The notes beneath the pieces are model-generated. The model was given only the letters and a program-made list of their open reading frames with translations, had not been told where the DNA came from and did not search any database. The translations under genes and the position numbers were made by a program. Below, piece by piece: positions 4,367 through 48,856 of a stretch of DNA of 64,000 nt. Numbering within the stretch: position 1 is the first letter of the stretch; each line of letters opens with the position of its first letter. The stretch comes from Heliocidaris erythrogramma. Lineage: Eukaryota > Echinodermata > Echinoidea > Camarodonta > Echinometridae. The stretch covers positions 13,733,880 to 13,797,879 of the forward strand of contig CM046855.1 of the NCBI GenBank assembly GCA_025617745.1. The letters run 5' to 3'.

Positions 4367-4519
4367 TGTCAGTGAAGCAGATGTGTTACACACGGGTGAT
4401 CAATGGACAGTGCTACGGAGGGAGTGGATCTCGGATGCCTACCACTCAGATGCAATGCTGTTGCAGTTTAGGAGCTGCCTGGGGATCCACCTGTGAACGA
4501 TGTCCACAGCAAGGCTCGG
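4367..4519 (+). CDS. LTBP: Exon 1 seen: TB domain A, first part
   Basis: Acceptor ttctgtag before 4367, donor gttagt at 4520, phase 1-1, 51 codons. It encodes seven of the eight TB cysteines: CYTRVINGQC, QMQCCCSLGAAWG and TCERCPQQG. Cys6-Cys7 spacing is two residues (C-E-R-C), the usual fibrillin/LTBP value. Confidence 0.9.
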
Positions 4520-13500: not shown

Positions 13501-16500
13501 GATTAGCAAAAGCACATGTATGTACATGCAAGAAAAGTAACTGAGTTAACTTCCGTGCTGGACTTGATATGAAATTATTCCCCCATCCTCCACTCTCTTT
13601 AATACTTAACCATTCGAGTGCTTCTTGTTGTTTTTTTCGGGGTGATTTTATATATATATGTTATTAGTGGGGGAATAATTGGTCCCCTTTTAGAAATATA
13701 GAGAAGAAAGGATAACAAAGGCAATGAAGGACGAAAAGGGGACACAGTATTCTTCATAAGAGGAGAAATGTATCTGACTAGAGAAATGATAAAAGAGTAA
13801 TAGGTAATAGTGAAACGTGATGGCACGTAAAACCGCAGGAAAGACACAAATGACAAAATTATTTAAAATCATATCTTTATTCCATAGAGGCAGAACCAAA
13901 ATAATAGGATGTATAATTAGTATTTAACTCAAATACTTTTAGGCAAAATAATATGAAAACTTTTATTCAGATAAGTCTGATTGTAATTTTAGATGCAAAG
14001 ATAAAAATAGCAATCTTGCTATTTGCCGCATCTTTCTTGACATGCCATAACATTTTGCTAAGCTACCTAAAATAATTTTCAAAATGTAAAGCTGATTAAA
14101 CTTTGAGAACTCCATGTATTTATAGCCTATTTTTGCCTGGATGAGCTCAAAGAATGCTCAGTTAATTTCCTTTTTGTCTGAAACTGTGCTAAGCTGATTT
14201 ACATCAATATTTTGAAATGCAGTATGGGAAACAGAATTTGTGTTCCCAGAAAGAGTCTTAGGAGATGCCCTTCTCACATTTCTTTTCATCCCCCTGTTTT
14301 TTACTGATGAGATAGGTGGGTATGTATTTAGGCTAGAGTCTAGACATATTACTCATTCATAGCTACATGCAAGAAGAAAACAATAGTTGGAATTTCTCCA
14401 TATATTATATAATTTCACCCCTTTTCAGAATATATCTTTGTCACTCTTGAATTCTTTTGCTCCGTTTCCATAGATCTTAATCTTTCTCATATACATGTAC
14501 AATATGTTGACCGTTTTGCATCTAAAAATTTACTTTTTCTTTACTTAGAAGTCATAAAATAATGATAGAAAATAGCTTCCATTGCCAGCAGGAATACACA
14601 CTCACAGACGCACATGTGTAATTGGTTGTAGCATATGTAGTAAAACACCAACATTTTGAAAAGCCTCTCTTCCTAAGTGTGTGATTTCTCACATGGTCTG
14701 GAGGAAAATATTTTGAAATGACTCGGCGGGTGGGGGAGGGAAACAAATTAGTGGCCTAAATCTTGACCTAATTCTACAGCAATTTAGAGAGATGGCATTT
14801 ACAAAGTTCTAACGTTGGTGAATGAGCTGTAAGGTTAATTGGCCATCACCAGACGTCTGTGGCCTTCAATTGTGAATTGATATGACTGATGCTTGTTTAA
14901 GTTGTTGCCAATTGATGGCATACATGATAATATGTCAGACCTCTCTCTCATCTGGAAATGTCACCTAGGGGGCACACAAGCTCACATGGTATGAGATTGG
15001 AATGAGGGTTTGAAATTCTGAAATTCAGCAGTACATGAAATTGAGGTTATGCCATATTTGAACCTCGGCTGAATGATTCCTATGTGTACTGGTATGTGTA
15101 CATCTCACAAATACATTATCTCCTCACAAAGAAATACAATTTTTTATGATGTTAAAACAACCCAGCAAATCTATCAGTGTTACATGAGTATCTGCTATGT
15201 ATGTTCTACTCTGACTTGTACATGCACTGTATTAACTCAATTTGTGTTTCCATAACATTCTATTTCAGTTTATACTTCTGAGTGATATTTTTTAGTTTTC
15301 AAATTTTCCAATTGAAATATTATGATTTTTGAAAATTATTTTTTAGTGGAATATACACTTTAAAGTTACACTCGTAGAAGTTGTAAGGCCATTTTTGTGT
15401 ATGCATATGTATCTCTTCATCCAATATTACTGTGTACCATTAAAGGACCTCAGTTGGTGCGGTGTTTGTATTTCTTTGTCTTTAATACTATACTAAATTT
15501 GTAATCTTTCCTCTCCTCTTCAATACAGACATTAATGAATGTACAAGCAGGAATGTGAACCCATGTGGAGAGTATGTGTGTCAAAACACATTGGGAAGTT
15601 ATCACTGTTCAAGCACTGAATGCAGTGATGGTTACAGATATGAGTTGTCACACCAAAGATGTGTAGGTAAGTACATCAAACTCTCAAGTTTGGGTACCGG
15701 AACTTGATTGTGGTCAGGATAAATGTGGTTTTAGAAAGAGATCTGAGCAACATTATCAGCATTTTCATACTAGAGCATGTAATACTTGTATTAATTTACA
15801 AGAAAGGGCAGCAATTCTGATAAGACATTAGTTCAATATTTTTAAGGTGAATTCCTGATTTCTTAGCTTTCCAGCTTTTTTTATGCCTCCGCCCACCGTA
15901 GGTGGTGCCGGAGGCATTATGTTTTCGGGTCGTCCGTCCCCTTTTCGTTCTCGCGATAACTTCAAAACCGTTTGGCGGATCAGTTTGTAACTTGGCCCAT
16001 GTATGCATATGGGAGGGACGATGAACTGATTAGATTTTGGGGTCTCAAGGTCAAAGGTCAAAGGTCATAGAGGTCATTATATACATAAAAATGGTTCGTT
16101 CTCGCGATAACTTCAAAACCGTTGTCCTCCTGTGCTTTTGAAGTGAAAAGATTTGTAATTTTGATGGACCAATCCTTTTTAAAGTGTACATGTATGATAT
16201 ACATTGCCAATCTGATGATGGCGGAGGCATAAATTCCAACCGCGCGTGGTCGGAGATTCATCTAGTATATAAATGTTTTTGTGTAGATGTCCATAATATT
16301 TTCCCTTGCAATTTTTGGTAAAAGAGTAATTAGTAATTTAAGTCACACTTTTTTGTCAAATGAATTTAAACTAGAGCCTAAGATATCAATTCATAGTGAC
16401 CATTAAAAGAATACTTTACTTGGGACTGATAATAACAATAATTTTCTGTACTTGTATATAGTGCATATCAAATTATGATATATGTGAATTCAAGGAATAA

Positions 16501-19500
16501 ATCCTACCAGGTACCCACGTACTACACAGTGATTGAGTGTAACCAATGTACTCGTCTTGCCAAAGGATGTAAGTTCAGCAGCAGGGTTCACACACCGTAC
16601 GTTGTTTGTTTAGTGTAGTATTGCATTGTTAGATGGCAGACCGTTTCAAGAAACCATTTAAAGTGATTTGGTAACTTTGTAGAGGCTTTGACAAATTCTG
16701 AGCTGCCTGGTCTTACATGCTATCAGTGTATGTAATATGGTGTAAAAATGAAGCCCAGGGGGGAAAAAGCACTTCAAAATCATCATATCCTTCACAAAAG
16801 TAAACATATGCAAGTGACCGGAAATACCAGACTCATTTCCCCCTATAGACTGTGTAAGACTAAACCATATGGCCATACGCTTTCGTAAATGGGAGTATTC
16901 AGTCATAGATATCTTAATAATAGCATGATATATTTGAAAACCTTTCTATGCCTGGCTATTTATTTATCCTTCTGAACAACATTATACAAGACAGATATCA
17001 AAATTCAACAATTTATTAAATCAAGCCTCCACAAAGTCACTGATTCCCTTTAATAAGATATCCTCCACGTTTGTAATGACTTGTCTCTCTACCTGTTATT
17101 TCTCAGATGTCAATGAATGTTCAGATGAAAACGTATGTGAGCATGGCCGTTGCATCAACGTAGATGGCTCCTACCGCTGTATGTGTCCACAAGGATTTAC
17201 TGCAAACCCCACAGAAACAGACTGCATAGGTCAGTATGATTTTATATTTATACTTCTGTGTTCACACTCCTCTATCAGTGCTATTACATTCCTGGGGTGG
17301 TAGTCTACATATTATCTTATTTTTAATATAGTGAAAAGATACTGATTTTCATAAAAAATATGAATTGCGTCTTCTTATTGGTGTTAGTAGTGATTTCTTC
17401 TGATAATGTTCAGTCATTAACCAACGATGAGCCATACATTTAGATTTGTTATAGCAATAGATCTGTCCCTGGAATAAAAATAAAATCATTTTCAGAATAC
17501 TACCCCTTAACATCCACTGGAATGTTTCCACAGATTCCCTTACAAAGTACAATATAGAGAAAATCTTTAAATACATATTTAGACTGATTGACATATTTCA
17601 TAAAAACAACAACTTCTCTATTGTCTCATATCAAATATGGTAAGCATAGAATATATCTGTCTTTTCTTTTCTTCAGTATTTCCATGTTCAGTAAATGTAT
17701 GTACGCATTGCTCCAGTTTCCATGCCTAAGTGGTTTCATTTTGAGATGGAAGACATCAACCAAGTTTCACATGAGCTAGTGATTCAAAACCTCTTCATCT
17801 TGTTGCCCCTAGGGTCATAAAAAGTAGTTTACAGCATCACAATAATCTCTTCTAGCTTTCTTTCTGTTATCTCTGCTTCTGTTCCTTTCTTGCTGAGCCT
17901 GAACAGTATTTGGCCACCAGAGCTGCCCCCTCTCAAGACAGCTTGATGTCTTCATTATGGACACCAACATGCTCTAAGAACAAGTGCAGTTTTTCCTGCA
18001 GAGCTTTCACAGACACATGGATCATATTTTATTGCTAGAATAGTTGCACAGTATTCTATAGAAATCTGAACCATATTCATGAAGAATAAGTGAATATTTA
18101 GTATATTATTGTAAATCTTTGTATCGAAATAGCTAACATTAGGCAATGTCATGTATCTGGTGGTATCATCAGTGGTGAATCCTAAGGAGGGACAGGGGTA
18201 ATCACAAGTACACCTGTCCCCCTCCCCCCCATTCTATATATGTAAATGTTTTTATACCCCCGCCAAACGAAGTTTGAAGGGGGTATATAGGAATCAGTCA
18301 ACGGTTGGGCGGTCGGTCGGGCGGTCGGTCTGTTGCAAATCTTGCGGATCGAACCACTTTCTCTTTTTTCGACCAAAGCTCATGAAATTTGGTACACACA
18401 TTGGTCTTGGTGGGAAGATGTGCAAGACATATTTTTTGGATGTGTCGGAAGCTGCGTTGCCATGGATAGTGATATTTCTAGTTTGTTATGGATTTTGCAA
18501 TAATAAACTTTTCTGAATCTCATAGATTCTGTTCACTGGTCTATAATGTTGGAGAAGTCGATCTACAGAAACCTTTTGAATCTAAACCAGTCATAAGCTT
18601 TTTGAAATATTTTGGCATATGAAAGTGCATGGGTTTATAATTCTGTGCTATCAGCAATTTTCTTACAGTATATCCATTGTGTGAAGAGATTCTTATTCAT
18701 ACATATGCTTCCTCCATCATGTCTTAATATCTTGCAATACTATTGTGGTTGCACATTTCTCATTACAATCAATTCCCGGGACTTCCTCACCACTAGATAA
18801 AGGTTTTAGCAATCTTTGAAATTCACTTGTGCATTGTGGTTGACTCATTGGTAGTTTCATTTCATTTCCTCCAACCACAATACTGGTACTATAAAAGGTT
18901 GTCAACCTCACTGAGGGACTCATTGAATAGTACTGCACTCTGTTTCTATTCCCTTGCCGCATTTGCAATGTTTTGTCATCCATCATGTTTTATTGAAAAG
19001 GATACTTAAGGTATTTAAGTTCTACCAGCGACTTTGTAGAATATGATGTACATGGAAAAGTTAAAGTAGTATTTAACATAAAATTTAACACAGTTATAAG
19101 ATTATTTTAAAATTGCAGAAAGGTATGTGTAAGAATCAATGAAACTAAGAAAGAACAAACTTCCGGATACAGACAGGACAGTATTGTTCATACCAGTATG
19201 TCTTCAAGAGAATATAAGTCATTAGGTTTCTGTTTGTGGAATAAATCAATATTAATGTGTATTTATAAATCTAAAATCCTAGTTTATTTGCTGATAGGCT
19301 TCTGATGTAATGTAGAATATAAAATGTATGCCAAATAAACATAAATGGACATATATATCTTTTGATTGTTATAGATATTGACGAATGTGGACAGACCCGA
19401 GACACACCCCTCTGTGGTGGAGAGGCCATCTGTGTGAATGAGGTGGGGGATTACAGGTGTGTTTGCACTGGAGATGCTATCTATAACAGGGAGTCAAGGA

Positions 19501-22500
19501 CCTGTCAGATCCCAGTGGTACAGAGCAGTCCTGAAATCGGTAAGGTATTTTCAGTGACATACAAGTTTATCTTTTTTTATGATTCCATGGGCATCATACG
19601 TGATAAATTGATTTGATGTGACAGCATTCATTAGGATAAACCTTCCGGCCCAAATTCACAAAGGAGGTTTAAACCTAAACCATGGTTTAAACCTCCGTAA
19701 GCGTACTGAAATAGGCGTAAATAAGCGCACATTGCCCATGCGCGCGCTCAAAGAAAATATATGATTGGATCGGATTCCGTGCGCACGTATGCTTAAAAAC
19801 CCCAGGAGGGGGTTTAAACCAAACCTTCTTTGTGAATTCGGGCCTCAGAGATCATTTTGATATTCATAATGGCTACTGTAGCGCAGTATTAGAGCATTAT
19901 CAAATAATGTTTTTAATTGCATAAATGTTTCTTGAAAGACACATTAACCAGAAATACATCTAGGAAAATGATTATGTATTTTTGTTGATACATCACTCTG
20001 TCAACTATTCAACAATAAAGGAACAGAGATTAATGACATTGTGATACTGCTAACAGCAAAAACTACAGAGAGAAAGGAAAACATATATCATCAATTCATC
20101 TGAAATAATGTGTCTGAACGCACTGTGCTACTGGTTAGAGAACATGTATACACATATTGATAACTAGCTCTGCAATCTTAATGTTCAGTTTATTCAGAAA
20201 AATTTGAAGCATCTTCATCTTTTCCTCCCTCCCTATGCAGTTGAGGTGGAGAGAAAGGACTGCTATGGCAGCATCAGTGATCTGAACTTCTGTTCCAATC
20301 TGCTTGGTTCTAACATCACTAAACAGCAGTGTTGCTGTAGCGTTGGGGCTGGGTGGGGTGATGATTGTGACCTCATGGTATGCCCCTCACAAGGCACACG
20401 TAAGTACAAGGATGGAGCAGGTAACACCTCTATATTTGCGTGTTTTGAGATATGGTACCTATAACTCTAAACTATCTAGTTGATAGGTTCATGCATTCTA
20501 ATGCCCTCTGCAGTCAGGATTTGTATAATATTAATTACAAAATAAAAGAATATTAGAAATCTTTTAATGTATGGATTATTTCTCAGCATTTTTGTATCTC
20601 TGATATCTATCTTTTCAGCATTAAAATTTGTTCTTCCTTTTTTTTCCAATTAAATGTAGAACTGCTAAAACTCCTCAAAAACCTTTTTCATTAGGGAAAG
20701 TTGGTTTCATCATGTACATTTTATTAGACATTAGAGAGAGATTTTGATATTAAGAAAGCAATCATGGGGCGCAGTTTTCCATAAAACACAACCAACAATT
20801 TGTTTACCCCTTCAGTGGCCTAGTAAGTTAAACCACCGCATTTTTATGTTATTTGATATTTGTGCTTGGAGAAAGTGTTTTCTTTCTTGAAATTCAAAAT
20901 GGGTTAGAGAATTGTGAAGCTGCAGATGTCAAGGAATAATAATTGTATATCAAGGTGAGCAGTGAGACAAGCACTATGACTCCAAACCTGTCTCACACAA
21001 TTTTCTTTAATAGTGATAAATTCTTTTAAACTTGAGACACTGGAAGGGTTAATTGGACGTACATCGTCAACGTTTGGTCTTGTTTGTAATTTGATTATGT
21101 GATGTAATATATTTTCAGTTGCATACAATGAGACATGTCCTGGGGGCCAGGGTAATCATGTGATCACACAGAGAAAGCCAATAGAAACCCTCAACTTACC
21201 AACAACATACCCTGAAGCTGCAGCTCATCCATCGGCAGGTCAGGAAGCTAGTATCTCAGGTAAGCTTTTTTTTTTAAAGAAAATTTATATTCTTTTCTGA
21301 TAATTACATTGATATGTGAGAAAGGAAGCGAGGGTTGCCAGAAAGCGCATGCTTGTGTTGAATACGTTTGGTTGCTCTGTCGTTTTTCTTTCTTTCTTTC
21401 TGTTTTGCTAGCCTTGGTGTGTGGGATAATCGCACACTTTCCTCCATCCTTTATTCTTGATTGAAAGGAAATTGATTTAGGTTCGTGTGTTAAGGTATCA
21501 TTTCATTAATCTCAATATATATTTTTTGTATTGTTTCCAATATTCATTTGTGTCATGAGATAGTTGTGAAAACACTACAGAAATCATATTAATATTGAAA
21601 GTAACTTACATGTGTAAAAGAGAGTTCATTTTGATATACTATCCATTCTGATGTAATTTGTATTCTTTAAAAACAGGTCCCAGAATGGATGAGGTTTAAT
21701 GTCATACTTTAATCATATCAATATTATTCGAAAATTACAGGACCTATGTTACTGAGTTCAGGCTTAAAAAACATTGAAGCTGTCGTCAGAAAAATGTGAC
21801 CTATGTTGATCTTTAATGGTATAGAATTAATCCGTTGGGTAACATGAAATAATGAAGTTAATTATTCAATTGTCTCCAACGGCCACCAATAATGAATAAT
21901 TAACTTCATTATTTATGTTGATCTTTGTTGCACGCACTTGCTATTCATTTACTTGTAAAAAAAATTGCTGCGATTTACCACGGCATATGTGAATGAGCCT
22001 TAGGTTTGATTTTTTTTTCATCACTTACATTTTTTTATTTTTTCTTTCTTTTGACAGGCATAAATGAATGTGATATCTTTCCAGAGATTTGTGGTACTGC
22101 AACTTGTGTTGACAGAGAATCAACTTTCGAATGCACCTGTGCTGAGGGATATAAATTTGATGATGAGAGGAAGACATGTATAGGTTTGTTCATTATTACC
22201 CTCTAATATTGGAAAGATGGTTGCTCTAGCATATCAGGCTGTGCCATGGAGCTTCAAACCAGACTAATGTAGTGAAAGCTTGGATTATTTTTATATCATT
22301 AACCCCTACTGGACCGTCCGCCCAAACATTTGAATGTTGAACAATTTGTTTAGGCTCAGAATGGCTTGAAAATTCCTCCTCATACAGAAACTTGTGCCTT
22401 CAGTATAATGTTTATTCCTATGCAATACATCTTTGCCCAGTTTGCTCAAGAAAAAAAGTTAATATTTAGCTCTTGAAAATCTATTTTCGACAATCTACAA

Positions 22501-24691
22501 GAGATCTACAAGAAACGTTTTGGAATGAATAAATACCAATAGTTAGTCTTTGCATGTCTGACTTGTTTCGTGTTCCATGTTTCAGCAAGCTTTCCTTTTA
22601 CCTTAGGCTCCTTAATATCCTCATTTCCAATTTTGTTAGTCATTATTTACAAGTAACGACAAGTAATCCAAAGTGATATAATATGTTTTTATGTACTTAG
22701 TTTTATTGAAAACACTCTGTATTATTCTTATCATTATTATTTCTTGAAAACAAAGCTGACAATATGTATTAAAATGAAATGTGAAATATGAATATGAAAT
22801 ACAAATAAACGTGAACCTGGACCTGATGTATGACACAAATTTCAATATGCTGGCTATACTTTAAATGCTGAAGTGAGAGGTTATCAATGGGTTCAATCAT
22901 AAGTATTTAATATATAGATCATCATCAGCAATGCTGTAAGAATTTGATTGTGGTATTAGAAAGTCAGGTTTCCTGTATACTTGAAATTCTGCTACATGAA
23001 GTAGCATGTTGTATTAAAGTACAGACTAAATGAGTTGAAACAAAAGAATGTATGTAGAAACATTATGGTATGTGTGTGAATTGATGGTTTTTCACTTCTT
23101 CTTTTTTTTTAGTGTATGACCACTGCTTTGTGAACCCTGGAGTGTGTGGAAATGGATCTTGTGAGAACACAGAAACCAGCTACAACTGCAAGTGTCCTGG
23201 GAATTATCAATTCGACTCCAGCCTAAGAAGATGCACATGTAAGAAAAGTATTCATCTCTTTTATACTCAGTATGTAGAGAAAATAAATTGAAATAATGGT
23301 CTAGACTAACAAATTTAGGAGAAACCTGTATTTCTATGAGACATTGCCTTTTACCTCACCTTGTGAATACTTGAGATGATGGCTTGCTCAGTGGCTATGT
23401 TTGGTAGCAAATCAAGGGTAGAGAGGAATGAACGTATGAAGAAGGTAGAAGTTGCAGAGATGAGATGCCTTTGAGCTGTGAGGAGTAACAAGATAGGATA
23501 AAGGGATGAATGATGAGGTGTGAAACAAAGTAGGGACAGAGATTGGATAGAAGATAAAAGAAAGTAGGTTTGGAAAATAGGTAATGATATTATGATAAAA
23601 GTGATCTTGTGTGCTATATCTAAACTGAGTTCCAGGATAGGTTGATCCCAGATAATAAGGATTTGGATGTTGTATTTCTGTTTGTATTGATAAGATACTA
23701 TAAGTGGTGTGGCTTTAACAAGATCTACGGCTATACAGATTGATCACTAAGACTTTTTTTTTCACCTTTATTAGAATGATTAATGTCCTATATGTAACAT
23801 TAATCTCCCCATTTGAAGGTAATCCTTACACCTCTTTGTTGCTCTGTCAGAGTATGGTAGTATCTCTCCCTGGAGTGTGCTGATAACAAAAATATAAGCT
23901 TGGTTCTTAAATAATAATAATAGTACATATGATTTATAATGCACCAAATCCATTCTGTAGAGTGCTCTAGGTGCAGTGTAAGATAAAGAAGTACCAGTAA
24001 AGGAATAAGACAGTAGAAATACAAAATAAGAATGTAATAAGGCTGAAGAATGTCAGTCTTAAAAGGATATTGAGATAATTTGAAGACGGTCTCCATGGGG
24101 AAAAGGAATACAGAGAGAGAGAGGGAGGGTATTAGGCGTGTCTAAATAAAATTTTATGAACCTGCTCTGTCTCATGCACACTTGTATTCTAGTATAAGTG
24201 CAGAGTACAAGATGCTCTGAATGTTCTGCATGGATCCAGCAGACCTATTTTGAAAAGAGGAAATGAAATGATTCAACTTGATTATTAAAAACTGGACATG
24301 ATGCAATCTAATTATGAATTTACTAATGGTGACTTCATGTTCATAGACACTAAGTTGGCAATAACATGCTTGAAGTGAAATGAAGCTTGTTTCTTTAGAT
24401 GAGTGATACCTCCATTTGGTAACAGCTACCTCTACCGGTATTTCTCTTTTTCATGATGTGCTCTAATTTCATTTTCTATTTCTGCTGAATCATCGCAAAC
24501 ATCTGCTTGCAAATAAGGTGGTCATATTTGATTGAATCAGACAATTATGATCTGTCCCATGGCGTTATGACTTCCTGTGACTAGTAGGTGTCCAATTGTG
24601 AATTGAATGAGGCTTGTTGACAGTAAGGTATTGCAATTTTGTTGAAGCCTTTGTGTCTTGTGAACTCTCATCCTGTTCCCCTGCACGCACG

Positions 24692-24725
<34 letters not shown>

Positions 24726-27700
24726 AGTTTTTCTAATATGTGCCCCTTTGTTTGCCTTCATGTGTTGTTTTACTTTTAAATAACTGCCTTAAGATTGAGG
24801 TTGAGGATATTTTATTACAGACTGACAGCTGTTACTTCATTCTTTATTACACAAAATCTTTGACTACCTTACCACCATAGATTGTGATGTGCACGTTTTG
24901 TTTCAAGCTCTATACAAGTTTGAAAGATTGTGATTATTCTTGTACTGTTGTAGAGATTTTTTGACATATTTTTATTTAATATTCCCAAATTACAAAAAGA
25001 ACCCAAATCAATGCAAGACAGATTTCAATAAAAATACCATTATATATGTTTGGTATGTTTTTGGAAGAATGACATGGAAAAACCATTTATGAAAAAGTGC
25101 TTCAGACTACTGTGCAATCGGTCTCTTTGGCTTAATTGATTATTTCAGATAGCTTTTTAGTATCAATAAAGATAATGATTTTAGTTAGATATTGTAAAAA
25201 ATGTTTAAAGTACAAGAAATCAGTGGATGGTAAATATTGCACTGATTCAAAAATTTACAGTCATGTCACACCTGATGCAGATATCTCATATTTACCACTC
25301 CACAAATCAAAATACTTCTCAACAAATTCAAACCTGCATTAAGCTGAATGTGTTTCTCCCATTTACCTTGTCTTCTTACTTTCTTTCAAATTACATAGTG
25401 ATGGATCATTGTGAATCACCTGGTGTATGTGGAAACGGTACATGTACCAGCACAGAGAGAGGCCCAGTGTGTAGCTGTCCAGAAGGTCATCAGTTCATTC
25501 CATCACTCAGGTTATGCGAAGGTAACCACTCAAGACATGTACTGGGTTCTTATAGAGTAGATTGGAAGATTAAATCACATCAGTTTTTAAAGAAAGTAAA
25601 GACCAAATGCATGTAGACCAATTCAGCGTCATGAGATCATTAATCCAGAGAAGGATGGTCTGATTGATTTTACAATTTCATCATAAAATACAATGATGAG
25701 TGTTGAAGATGTTGATGAAACTGCAAGAAAGCAGGGTCTTGGAGTATATTGAATCAGTGTTTTAGTATGTAACAGCATTAGAGACATGTATGTTGTTTGT
25801 GGAAACATGTCGTTGATTTCATAAATTGTGATGACATTTGTACTTTTGCTTATCCCAGTCCAGGATTATTGTATTGTATACAGTGGGGTCTGTGGGAATG
25901 GTACATGTGTGAACAGAACTGATGGCTATGACTGTCGTTGCCCTGAAGGACAGCGGTTTGATGAAAGGAGCAGTGCATGTGAAGGTACGTGTAAAGATCA
26001 CATAATCTATTGAATAACAAGCCTGAGATGTGACGAGAAATGGCTGAAATGTTTGGGCCGTACGTTCATGTCACTTTTTGTGCAGTCCCATATACCCATT
26101 TCTGTGTGCAGTACATGGGCCTTTCAGTGATATTGGGTCTATTTCTTTTGATGATTCCAAAACCTCACAGTATATAACAATTCCCGTATAGACATGATCG
26201 ACCTTTCCCAATTGAGACAGTTTCTTTCACAATGCAATTGCATGACCAGAACTCCATTTTATCTTTAAAGGGGACCAATAACCAAGAAATGTTTTGCCCC
26301 ATGTGGTTAGGGTTCCAAGCAGGTATTTGGAAAATCAGTATTCCTTCTTGAAAGACATATTGCAAGTTTACTGAGTTACCAAATTACTCTCTAAAGAAAG
26401 GTTAAAGTTACTTTCATTTTTCTTCCTCTTTCCAGTAACTAACTTCTGCGTAGTGCTAAGTGGTATCTGTGGTAATGGAACATGCATCCCAACTGAAAAC
26501 AGCTACACCTGTAGGTGTCCCAGTGGCTTCCAGTTTGATAGTGATACTGGCTTTTGTAAAGGTAAGATATAGCTCAACCAAATTAGGCACATCGAAGGTA
26601 TAATTAAGAGGGTGCAGTTATAAGCTCTAACATTATACTAACATAATTTAGATATCATATTGTATGACAGAGAAGAATAGAAATAACGCGAGAGTCCAAC
26701 TAAGGACAGGTCCACATGAATAGCATAATCCTTCCATAGACTGGCACTGAATGGACAGGAAGTTCTGTTTTGTATTCATGTGCTACCCTATAAACTGTTT
26801 ACTGTACTATACAAATATCACCTGTATTTGTATAAGATATCAGTATGAAATTTTTCTAGTCTTGAAAAGTAAGTGTATTAAATAAGTACATAAGTTTTCA
26901 TAGAGTTTGCTCCACATTTATTTTACATTTTTATGACAACATTTGATGTTATTGGAAGCCTGCTTTTATTCCACTAGTAAAAATAAATAACAGGTACACT
27001 TTTATTTTCATTGAAATTATGAGAAGGATAATGTGGTAAGGATGTTGCGCAAACAATATTTCTGCAGAGAGGAACATTTCTGTGCACGTTCTAGAGGGGA
27101 AATTCTTTGATCATGGTAGTAAATTTCAGATGCTGGTATCTTGTGCTGTTATTTATACTCTTTCCTTCCATGCTTGTATGTTTAATACAGACATTGATCT
27201 GTGTGTAGACTATTCTGATCTGTGTGGTAATGGTACCTGTGTGGATCAGGGACAGAATTTCATCTGTATCTGCCCTGAAGGATTTGATTTCTCCAATACC
27301 AAAGTCTGCATTGGTAAGTACAATTTTAGAAATCTGCTAAATATAAATATCTTACATATTAATTTCTGGTTATATAGATTTTATCATGGCATCATTATTG
27401 TGCTATATGTGTTTTTTTCCACTTTAGTTCTTTCCTGTGCATTTTATCTACCTGCTCAGATAAGAACCTTTAAATGTTTAGATATAATTAGTTCAGAATG
27501 AATCAATTGAATTCTATTTGTTTGTTTAATTTCATTCCAGACATCAATGAATGTTCTACATCCTCACATTCCTGTGGATTAGAAGCATCATGTATAAACA
27601 CACATGGCAGTCATCATTGTGCTTGTCCAGGTGGCTTTGAGTTCAATCCAGTAGCAAGAACGTGTGACGGTAAGGAAAATTTTAAGAGAGATTTAAAACC

Positions 27701-30700
27701 TGTCAAATAGATAATCTCAGTGTCCCTGTATAAGTTATGACTAACCAACCATGTAGCCAAGATTGAGAAGATGTGTGGTTGTCATGTCCCCCTTTTTATC
27801 CTTTTTTTGTGTGTAGGGGTCTTTTTTTCCTAGTCTTCCCCCCTTGCAGGTTTTGGGGGCTTTGGGGATTTTCGGCATTGAAGGCATCGAATGACCATTC
27901 CCATTGCCTCTGGCTATGTCAGATTTACCAAGCAAATGTGCTGAAGCGAAAACAGATGATGATCAGTTACTTTGATCAGAAGTTATGTAAAGACTACACT
28001 TTACAAGTCATGTATAACGTGGCTTGAAAAGATGAATATTTGTCAAAGCTTTAAAGGTTACAACTATACTTTTAGAATTTTTATTTTAAAACTATTATAT
28101 TGTCTTTATTTTGATTTGCAGATATAAATGAGTGTAGAATATCACCAGATGTATGTGGTAATGCAACATGCACCAATACACATGGTACTTTCCAGTGCTC
28201 CTGTGCTTTTGGTTACATATACAACCAAACACTTGGAATGTGCATAGGTAAGAAGTGCTTAGCATTTCCTTAAATCTTATAAAGAACCTGTTTGTTTTTC
28301 AAATAAGCAAGAAATGTAATGGGAGATATCATCTGTTTAGAACCAGAAGGGTGTTAACTTATATACTTTTACACAGAGTTATCTCACTTCTGGCTCTCAA
28401 CAGACGATATATCATTTTTAGAGTTGTCTAATAAGAGTTTTTATATACATTTAAAGGAAGTTTTATGTCATGGATAGAATCTTTCCTGAAGTTTAATCTC
28501 ATACTTCTGGTATATTTATTGTGACACTAGTTTCTATTAAATGGGATAGTGTTTATTTCATTATTCAGAAGTAATAATTTATATCATGACGTGAACTGAG
28601 CAATTCAAATGATTAACTTGTTCCAAGCAAGAATGCTATCCAATCGTCTTATCGAGTATGTAAATGTACCCATAAATCATAATACTACTAACTTTTAAAG
28701 GAACTTTTCATACCACAGAACTGTAAGTCCTCCAAAAGGAAAATAACTTCTGGTTTTCTTCTAAAACTTCTTTTTCCTTTCCTTATATTGTTAGATACCA
28801 ATGAATGTGCTGTATACAGAAGTATCTGCAGTAATGGTACCTGTATGAATACACAAGGGAGCTACAGATGTGTGTGTCCTAGAGGCTATAGATATGTCAG
28901 TGGCAATGGCAATGGATGTTTAGGTAAGACTGGCAATGAACATTGATGCCAGATGCTCGAGTATTCTTATAACTGTTGTGATTGAATTGTATCATTTGAA
29001 GAATATAAATGTAATACTGGCTGCTTATGTAGCACTTATGTCCATTTCACTCCGGGTGCTCTATTATTATTATCGGGTTATAGCATTGTGGCCAAATATG
29101 TAGCACTCCAGGATATGAGCTACCCATTTACACTTGGGAGGAGTATTACAAATGTAGATTAAGGATCCAAAGTGCCAGCAGATATTCAAACCCTCAACCT
29201 ATGGTTGAAAGTCAAGTGAATGAACAGTATACCACAACAACACCGCTACTTATGTTACTACTTGAAGCAGCCATAGAAATGGAATACAAATTGCCCAATA
29301 AACCCCTCCCCCTCCTTAGAATTTGTTCAAAGTATTATATACTGCAGTATTAATGCTTTCCAGAAAAAAACTCTCAAATGAATTCTTTACACATCTGTTC
29401 TCCTCTATTTTAGATGTCAATGAATGTACCACTGTACCTGGGCTTTGTGGAGATGCGACCTGTTTCAACAGAGAAGGGAGCTTTTTATGCAGATGTGATC
29501 CTGGCTACGACTTTGACGAACAGGAAAGGAGATGTCTTGGTAAAAATTTTAGTAGTCCATTCATTGCTGAAATGATGCTTTTGGTGTCGGACATTGTCTT
29601 GAATCTGGAAAATAACCTTTCTAAATTTTGAAAATGCAAGTTTAAATTGATTGCGAATGAGACAGAATATCCACTACTCAATTCCTCTTTCTCTCCTTTT
29701 CTGTCTTTTTTTCTCTTTTCTCTCAAACCAAATATATCAATTCAAGTTTCCTGTTACCCAAAATATGTGTATAATAAGGAGGGAAGTACCATTGACATTC
29801 ATTAATTTTCAGTCATATTCATTTTTTATTACCCAGTGAATTAGTTAAGTATTTTCCCGCTGAGGTGCAGTGATAAATCGGTTAAAACAAGACATGGTGT
29901 ATGTAGTACAACAATTTTCTTTCTTTTTCCCCTCTACACCAGATATCAATGAATGTTTCACATCAACAGGAGAGGTTTGTGGTAATGGTCAGTGTGAGAA
30001 CCGTGAAGGGTCCTTCAGGTGTATATGTCCCCAGGGAGCCAATTTTGATGAAGCCAGGAAACAGTGCATTGGTAAGGAAAGCTTTTGATTGTTTGCTTGA
30101 TTATAGACTTTTTTGTGGTTTCAGGAAGTCAAGGTGATTGCTGCAATCTGATTGAAAATCAGCAATGAGATTCAATAAAACTTGATGGTGATGATGAGGA
30201 TGTGAAAGATATCAATAGGCCAGTGAAAATACCACCAACACTAGGAAGGGAAGCACACCCTCGTCATTGTAGACAGGGGCGGATCCAGGAATTTGTAAAA
30301 GAGGGAGCACAGAGCCGGAAAAGTACACAATTAAGGGGGAAGTTTTTTTTCCATTGTGTACTTAAGGTATGCCAGTTGGGTTTCAAAAGAGGGGGCACGG
30401 GCCGGTTTCCCCCCCTATGTTGATCCGCCACTGATTGTAGAGATGATTGAATGAAAGAATACAAGAGAATTTATTAATAATATTAGGGAAAATAGAAAAA
30501 TTACTGGTTTATTGTTAAAATATCTTGCAAACAGTTAAGGATTTTATTGTCTTATGTCATGGATTGAAAATATTATTTAATATCAGTGGTGTAGCGTGAA
30601 TCAAGCCATTGGGGGGGGGGGGGGGGGGGGCGGGGGCACCGGTCTTACTCGAAAATTCAATGCAAATTTACTTTTCTTTTCCTTTTATCCCTTTCTCTCT

Positions 30701-33700
30701 TTTTCTTTTTTTCTTTTTTTTTCCTTTCTTCCTCTATTTCATGGGGGGGGGGGGGAATGTGCCCCCCATGCCTCCTGTAGTTACACCACTGATTAATGTA
30801 AAAAACATTTCCTAGTGAAATAATAACATTTTTATGTAGCCCTATTCACATTTAACTTCAGCATTAGAGAGCCACACTACATCTCGTGATCCAGAGACAA
30901 TAGAAGCTGATACTTGTTCAGCTCTTTGTGGAAATGCTACCTGTGCTACTGATGCTAGTGGACCTGTCTGTACTTGTCCAGCAGGCTATGAGTTTGATGC
31001 TTCTAGTAAAGCATGTGATGGTGAGTTATATTGGTGTATCAGATTTATTCTCTTTAAGCGCTCAGGAAGGAGGGAAATGTGTTTTTGAATATGTTTAGGA
31101 ACTTGTATATTTTGGACTTTTTTGACCTAGAGCTTCATACTTTGATAACTTTGATCCTTTTGCAGTATATCTGTTGTTTGTTATCTTGGATTGTAATCTT
31201 ATGCAATTTTGATAATGATGATAAATATAACAATGTCATTTCCAATAACTACCCACTTATCTTTAACAAGTCATATCTTCTTTTGGCTGTTCACATATTT
31301 AGGTTGGTACTAATTTCATTATTACATATTCATGATTCTTAATGTTTTACCTTTCAGGATTGATATTTTCTCCACAGAGGTGTGATTTTGTTACATACTG
31401 TTTTATGTGGTATTTAATCAAACTTATTTTTTTTATTGTGCAAAATTGTTTTTCGTTTGTAATTGTTTTTAAATGTTTGTCTCTCTTTGTTTATTGTTCA
31501 ATCCAGATGTTGATGAGTGTGAAAGGAACCCAGAGATATGTGGTACTGCCGTCTGCCAGAACAGGATAGGTGGTTATACATGTATCTGTCCTGAGGGCTA
31601 TGTCTACAAGAGGAAGAAGAAGAGGTGTGCAGGTTAGTGAATGGTGATTAGATGACAGATGATAATGACCAGTGATGATCTTGAAGATATTTTGTGAAGA
31701 ACCTTGACAGTGACAAGGAAAACTTTGTTCCAAATGATGCTGATAATGCTGACAATATAAGGACCATGATTGATGTATACAAGAAGCATAGTTCTCATTT
31801 TTTCTCATGAAAATTAGTGAATTAATGTTTGTATTGTCTGTTTATTTTTCATATTGTGTTATATTCGTGATTATATATTTATTGCTCCTCTGGTATTAGA
31901 TGTTTTATGTTTGTAAAGAAAACTAAAATGTTTTCATGCTGCCACCATTTCACGTTATCACTCATGCATACTCTGTGATTGCCTTCAGAAAGTGTTATGT
32001 AATGTGTTGTGGATGATGAAGTAAAGGAGTAGTAAAGTTTAGACAGTTGATGCTTTTATTGTATGTAAATGATTGTATGAAATTCCTGCTTTCCATCAGA
32101 GCAGTGCTAAAAAAAAGGTGTAAATTACTTCATTCCATTCAAAGCTACCCCACTTGATAAAGTAGTATGAGTAAACCAAGTGGTTTTAGAAAGCTTCTAT
32201 ACATTGATATGATTGGTAGGACAACTTATCTGTAAAATATTTAACATTTCAATAGCTCATTCCATTTATTTTTGTCTATTTTGTTTTATGTTGTGTCCAG
32301 TTAATCACTTGTTTTGCAAAGTGTCATACACATAATGCTAAATGTATTACATGTGTGTTTGGTAGTGAAATTATCAATAAAAATTTGTATGTTTGCCTAA
32401 ATACTGCAAAATTCATTTTTTTTATGCCAAAGTCATTAAACATGCATCATCTTCAAAACAATATTTAAAGAGATGAGTTTTTTGCCATGGATATTGATAA
32501 TGCTGAAAACCGTGTTGCTCCTTGGCTTAAATGTATTATTTGCTGTATTCTCCATGCTGCAGATTTTAATGAATGCAAGAAATATCGTACACTGTGTGCT
32601 AACGGTAGATGTGTGAACAAGAAAGGCACCTTTGCTTGCGTGTGTTCTCCTGGTCATACTTTCAGCTACGGTAGTCGCAGATGTGTGGGTAAGATATGAT
32701 CCATGTCTCGCTTCTTTCCCATCATTCACAAAGCAGGAAGTAAACGACCTAAAAAAATATATACATAGCGGCAGAATAAAGCTATGTTAGGTTTAAAGGA
32801 ATGGCAGGAGGGGGGGGGGGGTGTATGTTCGCACAACATAAGACTCTTTGCCGTATTCACATATTTGTATGTTACAAGGTACAGAAATGTGAATCTAGCT
32901 GTGCTTTAATATGTCATTTTATTTTGTCAAAGCTGCTTTTAGGTGGTTTACCATGTCTTCCGTGAATGAGGCTAAATGTTGTAATATCTGTGGATAGCTA
33001 ATTATGGAAATTCTGAATAAAAAATGAGATTTGCTGTAAGGCAGACCAGGCTACATAAAGTTTAATTTAGTCCATTTCCTAGCTGTATCATAGGTAATAC
33101 ATGACTGATTTTCTGGGGAATAGACAAAAATGTAACAATCAGCGTGCCCAATCCATGCATTTTTGTTTGTTGTTGTACAAAACCTGATTGGAAATGACAG
33201 TCTACAGCCGCTTTATAGAAGTGCCCTGCATTTATCTTTGAAAAAATAAAGCAACCCAACGCAATTTAGGATACCTTTAACGAATTGTGCCATAGAATTG
33301 TCTTATGCATCAACCTATTTCACTGCCCACTTTCCTTTTATATAGGCTGTATAGTATGACATCACCGACATTAGAAAATTGTACTATGCTTTTTATGCCT
33401 CCTTTTTAAACAGCATTTGTATTTAAAGAATATGTGTAATTGTCAGTTCTTCTTGAAAATATGACTGTATGTTCTATCTTCTTGTGTATCATATATTGTG
33501 AAAATTAGACAATGATTGCTGCTAATTTTGAAAGTGGCAGATCTCAATCAAATTCTACTTCTTCCACTTCTGCTACAATCTTGCTTTGATATATATATAG
33601 AGTACCGAAGTGTGACGTCATTAAATTTTGATTTTTGTATTTCCGTATTTTTATGACCATATTTAGGTAGAGCATGATGGAAAACGTTCACACATCAAAT

Positions 33701-33955
33701 TTGACACGAATCCGTTCATGGTGGCCCAAGGTATGGCTATATGAATATCTAATTAGCACCATTGAAGTCAGTGTTAAATTGGCCTGGTTCTAAACTGTTA
33801 AGAACCAGGCCAATTTACACTGACTTCAATGGGGCTAATTAGGTATTCATGCGGCCATATCTCGGGGCCCAATAAGCCAATTGCCATAAAATTTGGGATC
33901 TGGATATGGTATAAAACATGAAAAAATAGCTTTTTGTGACGTCATCACTTCGGTA

Positions 33956-33995
<40 letters not shown>

Positions 33996-36900
33996 TCAGA
34001 ACATTATAGTACCCAATCCATTGACTTTTTTTTTTTTTTTTTTTTTTTTGAAAAAAAATTGAAATTGTACTTACAAACATAGCTATGTCTTGCTTTTGTC
34101 CAATTTAATGGGATATTTGTTTTCTTTTACAGCTACTACCACAGCTCCATCAGATGTATGCAGTAGAAACCCAGGAATCTGTGGAAATGCAACATGTTCA
34201 GCTACAGGACATAGCATTCGCTGCTTGTGCCCAGCGGGATATGACTATGACCCATCAGTCAAAGGATGCAAAAGTAAGTCATGAATGTAATCAGGTATTT
34301 CAGAAGCAAAAAAAGAATATGCTTTCTTGTAAAAATTAATTAAGATACCTTTTTAAACCCAGCATTTTCATACTTTTACAATATAATTGAACACAGCCTA
34401 GTTTTAGAGAGAAATACATGTAGATCATCTAACCACTGGGGGAGCTTTGATTGACAGGTTGTATATTACACACAGGAAATACTTGTGTGAAATTTACACA
34501 TGCAGGTGCGAGCTTGATGATATGTACACTCATGGAATGAAGAAATCTACAAGAAATCAACAAGGAGCAATTTCTTGGCCAAAATTTGTAAACAAGGAGG
34601 AATGTGTAATTTACAAGGAGTCAGTAAGCTGTCAGAAATTGAAACTTATGCAGTTCTTGACATGATATGATATTAGAGAGAATGAACCTCAATAGGTTAC
34701 CTTTAATTCTTAAAGGGGAAATCCACCCTGATTACAAGTTGGTTTTAAAAGAAGCAGAAAAATTAAAGAAACATATCAGTGAAGGTTTTAGCAGAATATG
34801 ATAAGAAATAAGAAAGTTATGAATTTTTGAAGTTGCAATCAATCAAACACAAACTGGCAACTCCATGATCTTGCAAGCTCCTCTCCCATTTGCCCTGTAC
34901 CCCCAAAATCATTAATTTCCATTATCACTAAAGAAAATATTCAATCAGACATGCACCTTAAATAATGTATAATCATTGCTCATATGTTTTTACACAAAAC
35001 CTGTACGAAAATGAACATTTATGAAATTTTCTGTACTGAGCAAATGGGAGAGGAGCTCGCTAGGTACATACCTCACGGAGTTGCCAAAATGTGTTTGATT
35101 GATTACAACTTCAAACATTCAGTCCAAATGAACTTGAGAAGAACATATTCAACAAGTAACTTTTATACCTTTTGCAGCTAAATATAAGTTAATGTCAGTG
35201 ATGAACTAATCTAGTTTTCTTTTCTCAAACACATTGAAATATGGATTCTTATTATTCTTAACAATTTATATGATATTCTTTATGTTTTGAAAATCCCAAT
35301 TTGTTAGGTGACATATTTTCCTCATTCTTTCTTGTCATTTAGTTATCAGTGAGTGTGACCTGCCCAATAGATGTGGAGAGGGAGCTCTGTGTGAGGATAC
35401 TGTGGCAGGCTACAGATGTGCGTGTACTGCAGGATTTATTTATAACTACCAAGATCGTAGCTGTAGAGGTAAGATAACAACAGAGATAACTGCCGGTTAT
35501 AATCGTTTCTATTGTATGTTGATTATTCTTCTAAACCTTGTACACTTTATCCATCTTTGACTGCGAATATTGAACTTTCATATTCCTGTCAATGTCATGT
35601 AATAAATGCATGCATTTCAGTAATGATACAGAATACAATTCGACTTCCATAAAGACGTGAAGGTGTTTTGTCATGTTATTTAATTATATGATTATTAAAA
35701 GTTTTCATTATGAAGAGATTATAATCATTATTCCATACATCTCAGTTGGTGTAAAATGTATCTACTGGGTGCAACACATTGTTACATTGACTATTTTTGT
35801 TTCAACTTTCATTGAAATTATGAGGAAATATAAAAAAATAATCCATTTGTTATGTGTCCATTGCAGAGATTCCTCAGCCCCCTCCAGAGGCATCAGGTGG
35901 TCAAGGGTATCGACCAGCAGTCACAGAGACATCCCCTCCTAAGAGGGGTCCAAATGAGTGCAATTCTAGCCCCTGTATTAATGGGGTTTGCATTGACAGA
36001 CCAGATGGGTTTATCTGCCAATGTGTGGAAGGTTATCAGCATGTTGATTCGGTTACATGTGAAGGTAAATAGGATACATGATTAGAGCGAATTTTTAAAA
36101 ATCATTTAAAGATAAACTGAGCAAGTTTTATTCAACTGGAATGATAAATGTTTGTTTGTGGTCTTTAAAATGGCTTCAGCCTACATGTATATTGCCGCTA
36201 GCTTTCTGAAAAGTTAACCGACAGTTTTCAAGATGAATGGTCCAAAAGAATGACAGCTGCGAGCTGGACATGTCAATCCCACTGACTTTCTGACCACTTT
36301 TATGAGGGTTCAGAAGAGGGACAATGTCATATTTGTTGGCTGTCTGTCTACTTGCATGTCCCCCTTCACATTCACTTCACAAGCTAAAAAGGGATTTTCA
36401 TGCAAGACTAGATAAAGCTACAAAGAAAATTAATTCTGACTTTTTTTCCCTTTCCATTGGACAGATTTAAGACTGAAAAGGTTTCTGGAATCCCTCATGA
36501 ATATTGAACCTATTGACTACTGAATTCTCATAGACTTTGATATAGAAACCAGTGGGCAATGGGTTAAATGTCAAAATCTAAGTAGCCTATCAGATGTAAA
36601 AAATAACCACTTTCCCCCCTCATGAAACAACATTTGTACTAATATTAGCTATAGCAGCGATGAATACAAAACAAAATGTGTTCATCTAGTTCCAACTAGT
36701 CCAGTACTTTCCTTAATGTAGTTTGAAAATTCGAATAGAATGAAAAAAGGACAAATATAAAGCATTATTGTTGTAACTCTGTTCTTTTCCTTTCACAGAT
36801 ATAAACGAGTGTGAAAGTCCAGATGCTCATAACATGTGCATGTATGGAAATTGTGTAAATGAACCACCAGGCTCATACACATGTGAATGCACTAATGGAT

Positions 36901-39333: not shown

Positions 39334-39885
39334 GTGAGAATTTTTTTTCTTTTCTTTTCTATTCAGTCCTAGGTAGCTTTTGGACATTGATACTACTCAT
39401 TTCTAATTTCCATGATTTTAAAAATATTTGTCTGTTAAAGGTTGTGTAGGAAATAGGAAGAAGAGCTTTGCATTGAGTAACAGACAGATCATTTCCAGTG
39501 AAAAAAAGAAAGACTTTGACATTACTATTGATATCTTTATTTTGAATATACACATGATTATTGATTAATGATGGTCTACATTTCAGTTCTATGACGATGT
39601 AAACAATGACAACAAATAGACTGGAATACCTTTGTTGAATATTTAGTGCTTTAGTAATTTTTGATAGATATTGATTCCTTCGTACATTATTTAAAGCATG
39701 CCAGACATTAACCCTTAAATTGTCACCTAGTTAATGAGCATAACTCAGAAATGAAATTAAGTGAGACAAGGTTCAGCCACAGTACCTTTTTATTGTTGTT
39801 CATCTTGATACGAATACAAATCATGAACCCATTTTAATTACAAGAAGAAAAACAAGCCATTTTTGTCCAAGAATGATATACAATT

Positions 39886-47624: not shown

Positions 47625-48137
47625 CTAGAGTGCTACATCTAGTACAAACTCAAGTATTTTGAGCAGAAAGAGCCATCCTGGATGTTCATCTTCTTCAGGT
47701 GTTTCAAAATGATGTTGTTCTGGAAGATTAATATCACTCTGTGCCAGATCCCTGGTGTCCAAATAGACAGAACATCTGAACTTGGTTTCTGGAAACCTTG
47801 GATGCCCATAAATAGCTATGGCAGTAGGTCGTTTGAAGCTATCGGGGATATCCACATAGTCTTCGCCACAAGTGACTGATTTAAAATCGTAATCTTCAAA
47901 ACTGGGATTAGAATTGTTCTCTGATACATAAATGTCTGCATCTCCTTCCAATGTTTCCACAAATATTCGAACATTTCCTGGTCTGGACAGCTTGAAATAA
48001 CTGTAATTTCCTGGACCAATGTCATCAACAAAGGTCTGAAGAAGGTGAAAGTAATTTTCTACTTCCACTGAAAGGCAAGCCCCCATCTCCAAAGAAACAG
48101 CATAGACAACCACAATTACATATTTGGAGAACTTCAT
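47625..48137 (-). CDS. C6orf120: UPF0669 / C6orf120-like secreted protein
   Basis: A 170-residue protein read right to left from ATG 48135-48137 to TAG 47625-47627. Residues 1-21 (MKFSKYVIVVVYAVSLEMGA) look like a signal peptide. The body has the family signatures GPGNYSYFKLSRPG, EGDADIYVS, PSFEDYDFKSVTCGEDYVD and AIYGHPRFPETKF; NYS is an N-glycosylation sequon. The C-terminal GWLFLLKILEFVLDVAL is hydrophobic as in vertebrate homologues. Length is close to the human protein (about 190). The family is small, secreted and of poorly defined function. I chose Met at 48137, not the upstream in-frame Met at 48326, because an acceptor (ttctttattctag, AG at 48207-48206) lies between them, so the upstream codons are intron. 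The first 5' UTR exon was not identified. Confidence 0.88.
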   Translation of the reverse strand: MKFSKYVIVVVYAVSLEMGACLSVEVENYFHLLQTFVDDIGPGNYSYFKLSRPGNVRIFVETLEGDADIYVSENNSNPSFEDYDFKSVTCGEDYVDIPDSFKRPTAIAIYGHPRFPETKFRCSVYLDTRDLAQSDINLPEQHHFETPEEDEHPGWLFLLKILEFVLDVAL

Positions 48138-48205
48138 TTTGCTTAAAGCTGCAGTAGCATCTCCTATTTGGGTGATGGTAAACAGGATATCAAGCAGCCA
48201 CAGAT
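48138..48205 (-). other. C6orf120: 5' UTR part of the C6orf120-like exon
   Basis: Transcribed leader between the inferred splice acceptor (minus-strand ..ttctttattctag before 48205) and the ATG at 48137. In frame it contains no stop, but the pyrimidine tract plus AG upstream argues for splicing here. Confidence 0.55.
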
Positions 48206-48856
48206 CTAGAATAAAGAACAATATCAATGATGATATTAAGTTACTGCAAAGGTGGTCTTTCAAGTAAACTAATAGTAAAAGAATTATGAGATTTTTTAAC
48301 TGGCAATTTAAAATTACTAATTCCAATCTGGATTTGAATCATTAAAAAAAAATTAACTTTGAAGAAAAAGTATAAATCTAAGTGATTTTAAATTGATATT
48401 TAATTCAGATCTTGATTAGGAATTACAATAAATCACCCAAAATTAATTTGAAGACATACATGTACATGTAGGTCTATCTTATCACTTGCATTCTGCTCTT
48501 TCTGTCTTTTACATTCATCCGAAGAAAAAATGCATAATTTATGATTAATGACAAATGATGTGTGGTCTTCACTTGAATTTGAAATGAAAATTATCTTGAT
48601 GACAAGTAGAATCTATCTAATTAATTTGGAGCATAACTTGCACAACAACAAGTCATTTGATCATGTTGCTCATGTTAATTGGTTAGCTTGTGCATCAACT
48701 TCAACTTCAAGTTGGCCCCTGTCCTGACCCAGCGGTTACAGTCCCTACTCAAGACTAAGCCAAGAAGACACTGCAGCTGGACTGTTGTGACTCCAGGCTT
48801 GGAGTTCCACCGGTGGCAGCGGAGCTCCCTGGAGTAACTTACTACTTACTTATCAG

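What the first reader, a model, noticed from the sequence alone, without database searches (positions are those of the whole stretch)
20241..21160. Invertebrate TB domain with the LAP-binding type Cys6-Cys7 expansion
TB-B has C-DLMV-C, two residues more than TB-A (C-ER-C) and TB-C (C-YS-C) of the same protein. In vertebrate LTBP-1, -3 and -4 a two-residue Phe-Pro insertion at this exact place is what lets the TB domain bind the TGF-beta propeptide. Here the length is kept but Phe-Pro is replaced, while the NITKQQCCC and GWGDDCD surroundings look LTBP-like. This could show an early or altered form of latent TGF-beta tethering.
Basis: partly seen in the sequence, partly recalled or inferred. Interest (0 to 1): 0.72.

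Follow-up and report, generated by a model that had tools for sequence, protein, structure and literature searches.

The report
Echinoderm LTBP with LAP-docking TB domain
An echinoderm genome carries a counterpart of the vertebrate proteins that tether inactive TGF-beta in tissue, with the telltale two-residue docking insertion but different residues in it, and the same genome has a matching TGF-beta.

Summary
Exon 20241-20399 plus 21119-21259 encodes a complete 8-Cys TB domain (TB-B) with C-DLMV-C. It is the reciprocal best match of human LTBP1 TB2, the LAP-binding TB, not of a fibrillin TB (77 bits, next 42; about 71 with the insertion cut from the query). Of 12 TB/hybrid exons found in the genome only TB-B has four residues between Cys6 and Cys7. 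It keeps 4 of 5 acidic LAP-docking positions; the other 11 keep 0-2. The gene reads like one LTBP: EGF1-like, hybrid, cbEGF, TB1, 5 EGFs, TB2 (TB-B), 18 EGFs, TB3. One of 16 TGF-beta-family matches in the genome is a true TGF-beta, with a Cys33-like cysteine, RGD and furin-type site. The mitochondrial contig marks an echinoderm. A 2023 review says LTBP1 is absent in echinoderms; other papers place LTBPs, with this insertion, in deuterostomes. So the insertion is a known hallmark. The new points are Met-Val for Phe-Pro, an 18-EGF TB2-TB3 spacer (LTBP1: 2), and no detected terminal EGF pair. Binding is untested; the tree is weak.

The parts
4367..4519 (+). TB-A = LTBP TB1 by position, first exon (Cys1-Cys7, C-ER-C); its Cys8 exon was not located
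   Evidence: Pfam TB 37.9 bits
10207..19539 (+). five EGF exons between TB1 and TB2 (10207-10377, 10852-10977, 15529-15666, 17107-17229, 19375-19539)
20241..20399 (+). TB-B = LTBP TB2 (LAP-binding type), exon 1: Cys1-Cys7 with C-DLMV-C, sequon NIT, acidic docking residues
21119..21259 (+). TB-B exon 2: Cys8 and linker
22058..36933 (+). 18 EGF exons between TB2 and TB3 (LTBP1 has 2); 9 of 18 carry an N-glycosylation sequon of the type CGN[GA][ST]C or CSNGTC
38428..38628 (+). linker plus TB-C = LTBP TB3, Cys1-Cys7 (C-YS-C)
39250..39333 (+). TB-C second exon with Cys8 (EYRMLC); last exon that could be placed

Best explanation
The gene is the LTBP of an echinoderm, the only one found in its genome. 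TB-B is its TB2, the domain that in LTBP1/3/4 docks the TGF-beta propeptide (LAP). Most likely the two extra residues (Met-Val, in the place of Phe-Pro) hold the C6-C7 loop open so that the Cys2-Cys6 disulphide can exchange with the LAP alpha-1 cysteines, while the acidic patch of TB-B attracts the basic LAP helix. The ligand would be the one true TGF-beta found in this genome (C3, about 13 Mb away), whose prodomain has the cysteine (GGQCKFDLQEYQQRRIAAIKGQIL), an RGD and a furin-type site. The product would be a covalent large latent complex in the matrix, released by RGD-binding integrins. Shown: the sequences, the orthology evidence, and ligand and LTBP in one genome. Inferred: disulphide exchange, complex formation, integrin release.
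For: TB-B vs PDB: LTBP1 TB2 80 bits, fibrillin-1 TBs 40-41 bits. Reciprocal best hits TB-B/LTBP1 TB2 and TB-C/LTBP1 TB3 among 12 own and 6 human domains. The insertion is in 1 of 12 own domains. Acidic positions 4 of 5, against 0-2 in the other 11 (positions from PMC9713452). A sequon just before the CCC is shared (NIT here, NVT in LTBP1). LTBP-like domain order, with an EGF1-like exon, a hybrid-type exon and a cbEGF exon upstream. A separate fibrillin gene on C8. Ligand: prodomain exon 46.8 bits to TGFB2; mature region 153 bits to TGFB3 against 69 for the best GDF, RGD aligned; it scores 140.8 bits to TGFB3, the other 15 family matches at most 59.3. PDB 9r3s holds LTBP1 and TGFB1 proprotein chains in one entry.
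Against: Phe-Pro is replaced and one acidic docking residue is Ser. The tree joins TB-B and LTBP1 TB2 only at 65/85 on 57 columns, and a forced TB-B/fibrillin group is not rejected (p 0.095). The 18-EGF spacer is unlike LTBP1's 2. The EGF3-cbEGF15 pair, reported in all complete LTBPs compared in PMC3906135, was not found. HMMER's pairing of the ligand cysteine with TGFB1 Cys33 has only middling column confidence and a one-residue offset, and the TGFB2 and TGFB3 alignments start after it. The bowtie CxC exon of the ligand was not located. No transcript, protein or binding data; no interface model.
Confidence: 0.75

Rival explanations
1. It is an LTBP orthologue, but its TB2 no longer binds LAP covalently (Met-Val instead of Phe-Pro), so it acts like vertebrate LTBP2, as a structural microfibril protein only.
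For: Phe-Pro is the residue pair named for binding in vertebrates (PMC9713452), and it is absent here. One of the five acidic positions is Ser.
Against: LTBP2 lacks the two-residue insertion altogether (PMC8322146), whereas here the length is kept, the residues are hydrophobic, 4 of 5 acidic positions are kept and a ligand with a cysteine before the LAP helix exists.
Confidence: 0.17
2. It is a fibrillin-like protein private to echinoderms, and the four-residue spacing arose independently.
For: A review proposes echinoderm-specific FBN-like proteins and states that LTBP1 is absent (PMC10381214). The tree support is weak and does not reject a fibrillin grouping. The 18-EGF array is unlike LTBP1.
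Against: Reciprocal best matches for two TB domains in the right order, for TB-B also with the insertion cut from the query. Long linker before TB-C, as in LTBPs. A separate gene with fibrillin-type hybrid and TB domains exists.
Confidence: 0.06
3. The four-residue spacing is an assembly or gene-model artefact.
For: No transcript was seen.
Against: The four residues lie inside one continuous exon, on a contig of 56.7 million bases, aligning without gaps to LTBP1.
Confidence: 0.02

Closest known systems
Human LTBP1 TB2 (also called 8-Cys3 or TB3; PDB 1ksq, and 9r3s with TGFB1 proprotein)
   Same: Four residues between Cys6 and Cys7, sequon just before the CCC, GWGD motif, 4 of 5 acidic docking positions, 48% identity over 62 aligned positions
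   Different: Met-Val instead of Phe-Pro; Ser instead of Asp after Cys2; 18 instead of 2 EGFs follow before TB3
LTBP-like proteins of invertebrate deuterostomes (acorn worm in PMC3906135; Robertson 2011 as cited in PMC3306419)
   Same: Insertion reported as conserved in all LTBP-like proteins of Robertson 2011; cbEGF-linker-TB3 arrangement
   Different: EGF3-cbEGF15 after TB3 reported as conserved there, not found here; their insertion residues were not seen by me
Vertebrate LTBP2
   Same: LTBP domain order (recalled)
   Different: Lacks the two-residue insertion and does not bind LAP covalently (PMC8322146, passage)
Fibrillins, including the one on contig C8 of this genome
   Same: TB, hybrid and EGF building blocks; phase-1 exons (recalled for fibrillins)
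   Different: All 8 C8 TB/hybrid exons found have two residues between Cys6 and Cys7; acidic positions 0-2 of 5

Membership tests
LTBP, TB2 of the LAP-binding type | 8-Cys TB domain with CCC | tested here: met
   Pfam TB 52.8 bits spliced, 47.6 for exon 1 alone, cut-off 22.2
LTBP, TB2 of the LAP-binding type | two extra residues between Cys6 and Cys7 | tested here: met
   DLMV; the 11 other domains found in the genome have two residues
LTBP, TB2 of the LAP-binding type | the extra residues are Phe-Pro | tested here: not met
   Met-Val. Phe-Pro is what is described for LTBP1; PMC3306419 defines the wider group by the insertion, not its letters. So it is not the vertebrate Phe-Pro form
LTBP, TB2 of the LAP-binding type | five acidic docking residues | tested here: inconclusive
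   4 of 5 acidic (D, D, S, D, D)
LTBP | EGF1, hybrid, TB1, EGF array, TB2, EGFs, linker, TB3 in order; one hybrid and three TBs | tested here: met
   the EGF1-like exon is marginal (EGF_2 22.3 bits, cut-off 22.1) and tied to the gene by place and strand only; TB1's Cys8 exon not located
LTBP | two EGFs between TB2 and TB3 (LTBP1 arrangement) | tested here: not met
   18 EGF exons; LTBP1 two
LTBP | EGF3-cbEGF15 pair after TB3 | tested here: inconclusive
   none found, both strands, to C3:13816999; a missed, split or more distant exon is possible
Fibrillin | seven TBs and two hybrids, two residues between Cys6 and Cys7 | tested here: not met
   one hybrid and three TBs found on C3; TB-B has four residues
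Covalent large latent complex | disulphide between TB2 Cys2/Cys6 and LAP Cys33 | not testable with these tools
   both partners present in the genome; bond not observed
True TGF-beta (ligand) | LAP alpha-1 cysteine, RGD, furin site, nine-Cys mature domain | tested here: met
   exons not joined by a transcript; bowtie CxC exon not located

The most novel reading that the evidence does not exclude
Echinoderms tether latent TGF-beta with an LTBP whose docking loop uses Met-Val in place of Phe-Pro, and whose matrix anchoring has been rebuilt: the TB2-TB3 spacer has grown to 18 EGFs, half of them with an N-glycan site between Cys2 and Cys3, and the C-terminal EGF pair of the fibrillin-binding region is gone. 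Latent TGF-beta storage would then differ mechanically from that of vertebrates, perhaps in connective tissue of changeable stiffness.
Probability: 0.25. Interest if true: 0.6.

Novelty: new variant of a known kind. Interest (0 to 1): 0.47.

Why it matters
It puts an LTBP with the LAP-docking insertion, and a TGF-beta with a matching cysteine, in one echinoderm genome, against a recent review that calls LTBP1 absent there. That makes the age of the covalent large latent complex directly testable. It also offers a natural test of whether Phe-Pro, or merely two extra hydrophobic residues, is what the docking site needs.

Tried and rejected
Rejected: a fibrillin identity for TB-B, though the AU test alone does not exclude it. 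Rejected: recent tandem DNA duplication as the source of the EGF array (no direct repeat family of 60 bases or more in 22000-37000); the copies are old or diverged. Not found: EGFs after TB-C, the bowtie CxC exon of the ligand, the Cys8 exon of TB-A. Tree: built once, with the insertion removed from both rows; 57 columns, 1 starred branch of 15, not decisive. The structure model of TB-B was never run: all 7 requests met a full queue. Papers wanted but not held: PMC3780968, PMC14949, 10.1042/BJ20101320.

Full report
What is there. Exon 20241-20399 (+) and exon 21119-21259 (+) encode a full eight-cysteine TB domain, TB-B...KDCYGSISDLNFCSNLLGSNITKQQCCCSVGAGWGDDCDLMVCPSQGT|LAYNETC.... The intron falls five residues after Cys7; the donor is GTAAGT and the acceptor ends in TTTTCAG. 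The Cys6-Cys7 stretch is DLMV, within one exon. A further candidate donor 21 bases downstream would only change what follows Cys7.

The gene. A script that scored splice sites, with four exons set by hand, gave 28 exons between 4367 and 39333; the 27 from 10207 on join into one open frame of 1220 residues. The scan asked for phase-1 borders, so that shared phase is partly by construction. Order in the window: TB-A (4367-4519), 5 EGFs, TB-B, 18 EGFs, linker and TB-C (38428-38628 with Cys8 on 39250-39333). Upstream of the window, in stretches of the same contig and strand, lie an EGF1-like exon (L019:8981-9406; Pfam EGF_2 22.3 bits, cut-off 22.1), a hybrid-type exon with CC instead of CCC (L014:2405-2782; Pfam TB 39.3 bits) and a calcium-binding EGF exon (L014:9363-9674; EGF_CA 44 bits). 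That is the order of an LTBP: EGF1, hybrid, cbEGF, TB1, EGFs, TB2, EGFs, TB3. The LTBP order is partly recalled; its C-terminal part is in PMC3906135 (abstract and passages seen, section 10 read). That the upstream exons belong to this gene rests on place and strand.

Which family. Against the PDB, TB-B matches LTBP1 TB2 (1ksq, 9r3s) at 80 bits and fibrillin-1 TBs at 40-41. TB-C with its preceding EGF and linker matches the cbEGF14-linker-TB3 stretch of LTBP1 (57.7 bits for that alignment; fibrillin-1 38.8). Among 12 own and 6 human domains, TB-B and LTBP1 TB2 are reciprocal best hits (76-77 bits; next best at most 42.4). With the insertion cut from the query alone the scores are 70.6 and 70.9 (next best at most 49.5). 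TB-C and LTBP1 TB3 are reciprocal best hits too (41; next best at most 36). A tree on 57 columns without the insertion puts TB-B next to LTBP1 TB2 with support 65/85, which is weak; holding TB-B together with four fibrillin TBs costs 10.75 log units, p-AU 0.095, not rejected. So the tree leans the same way but proves nothing alone. TB-A is nearest to fibrillin hybrid domains (31.9 and 28.4 bits; no LTBP TB1 was among the rows), so it is called TB1 by position.

The whole genome. The window's assembly (1.06 Gb, 26 contigs) has 12 scored TB-type exons: four on C3, which are this gene with its hybrid, and eight on C8 that look like one fibrillin gene (L012 and L009 match the fibrillin-1 hybrids best). 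The tool calls its counts lower bounds, and a fibrillin should have nine such domains (PMC3306419), so at least one was missed. Cys6-Cys7 holds two residues in 11 of these 12 and four only in TB-B.

Docking residues. PMC9713452 (passages seen and section 14 read) names, after Lack 2003 and Chen 2005, a Phe-Pro insertion and five acidic residues (E5, D12, D17, D39, E42) as what shapes LTBP1's binding of TGFB1. I matched that numbering to the PDB sequence by its spacings; the match is mine. TB-B has D, D, S, D, D there: 4 of 5. The other 11 own domains have 0 to 2; the human fibrillin domains and LTBP1 TB3 have 1 or 2, one of them (FBN1 TB6) with the first position missing from the row. Both cysteines named as LAP partners, the second and sixth, are present.

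The ligand. A propeptide search scored 13 exons. One (L032, C3:26765432) reads GGQCKFDLQEYQQRRIAAIKGQILSKLGL, the LAP alpha-1 helix; best match TGFB2, 46.8 bits. HMMER sets its cysteine opposite the TGFB1 cysteine with only middling column confidence and one residue closer to the helix; the TGFB2 and TGFB3 alignments begin just after it. Of the five N-terminal propeptide exons among the 13, only this one has a cysteine in the 15 residues before the helix. Further exons on the same strand give an arm-domain piece (L023) and, at 26799358-26799861, an RGD, an RRRR site and a nine-cysteine mature domain that matches TGFB3 at 153 bits, the best GDF at 69. Among the 16 TGF-beta-family matches of the genome it scores 140.8 bits to TGFB3 and the other 15 at most 59.3. 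These exons were not joined by a transcript, and the bowtie cysteines were not located. PMC8931421 (passages seen) reports a single true TGF-beta in sea urchins, acorn worms, sea squirts and amphioxus.

Which animal. The contig C24 carries COX1, tRNA-Arg, then reading frames that I take by eye for ND4L and COX2. In COX1 the codon AAA stands where bovine COX1 has Asn at 3 of the 4 AAA sites within the stretch compared. AAA for Asn is the echinoderm mitochondrial code (table 9, shared with flatworms), and the gene order is, from memory, that of echinoderms. I therefore take the animal to be an echinoderm; the class is not determined.

What is known. PMC3306419 (passages) says the two-residue insertion is critical for LAP binding, is conserved in all LTBP-like proteins of Robertson 2011 and is absent from the fibrillins inspected. 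PMC3906135 says LTBP and true TGF-beta arose with deuterostomes. Against that, PMC10381214 (passages and section 25 read) says LTBP1 is absent in echinoderms and that the extra fibrillin-like proteins are probably an echinoderm group of their own. The present gene contradicts that sentence for this species. The listings of searches showed no paper that I recognised as describing an echinoderm LTBP. Several were capped (25 of 75, 20 of 846, 15 of 20, 25 of 932, 25 of 350 papers), and the held library lacks most subscription papers, Robertson 2011 among them. So this is no proof that none exists.

How it probably works. By analogy with LTBP1, the hydrophobic pair in the Cys6-Cys7 loop exposes the Cys2-Cys6 bond, the acidic face meets the basic LAP helix, and the two LAP cysteines of the TGF-beta dimer exchange with that bond. 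Met-Val keeps length and hydrophobicity, so I expect binding, perhaps weaker. All of this paragraph is inference.

Differences that may matter. LTBP1 has two EGFs between TB2 and TB3; here there are 18. Nine of the 18 carry N-G/A-T/S just before Cys3, and by a simple rule 6 of the 18 have the calcium-binding consensus. No EGF was found after TB-C in the rest of the window or the next 19 kb (both strands), whereas PMC3906135 calls the terminal EGF pair conserved in all complete LTBPs compared. Because the region from TB3 to the C-terminus of LTBP1 is what binds fibrillin-1 (PMC3906135, passage), anchoring may differ here. A missed exon remains possible.

Verdict. It is a known hallmark in a phylum where its presence was denied, with altered residues and an altered gene around it. 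Interest is moderate.

Noticed in passing
window 22058-34273: Nine of the 18 EGFs between TB2 and TB3 carry an N-glycosylation sequon between Cys2 and Cys3 (CGNGTC, CGNATC, CGNGSC, CSNGTC); six EGFs in a row (22058-27313) fail a simple test for the calcium-binding head motif.
   Followed up: partly
window 38628-64000 and C3 to 13816999: No EGF-like exon was found after TB3, although the LTBP C-terminal EGF pair is reported as conserved; the 3' end of the gene is unresolved.
   Followed up: partly
window 39334-39449: If exon 39250 were read through its donor, the frame would add a hydrophobic stretch (FFSFLFYSVLGSFWTLILLISNF) before a stop; probably intron sequence.
   Followed up: no
window 47625-48338 (-): Homologue of C6orf120 (UPF0669, 113.3 bits).
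   Followed up: no
window 57643-57993 (+): Likely DMAC1 homologue (27.2 bits, cut-off 27).
   Followed up: no
L017:6811-7059: Exon of a TRAP-delta (SSR4) homologue downstream of the window (Pfam 53.2 bits).
   Followed up: partly
C3:26765279-26799861 (L034-L037): True TGF-beta gene with a LAP cysteine and an RGD aligned to that of TGFB3, on the same contig as the LTBP.
   Followed up: yes
C3:11144327-11191706: Two neighbouring BMP-like ligand genes (L024/L029/L041 and L025/L021/L042), BMP type by eye only.
   Followed up: no
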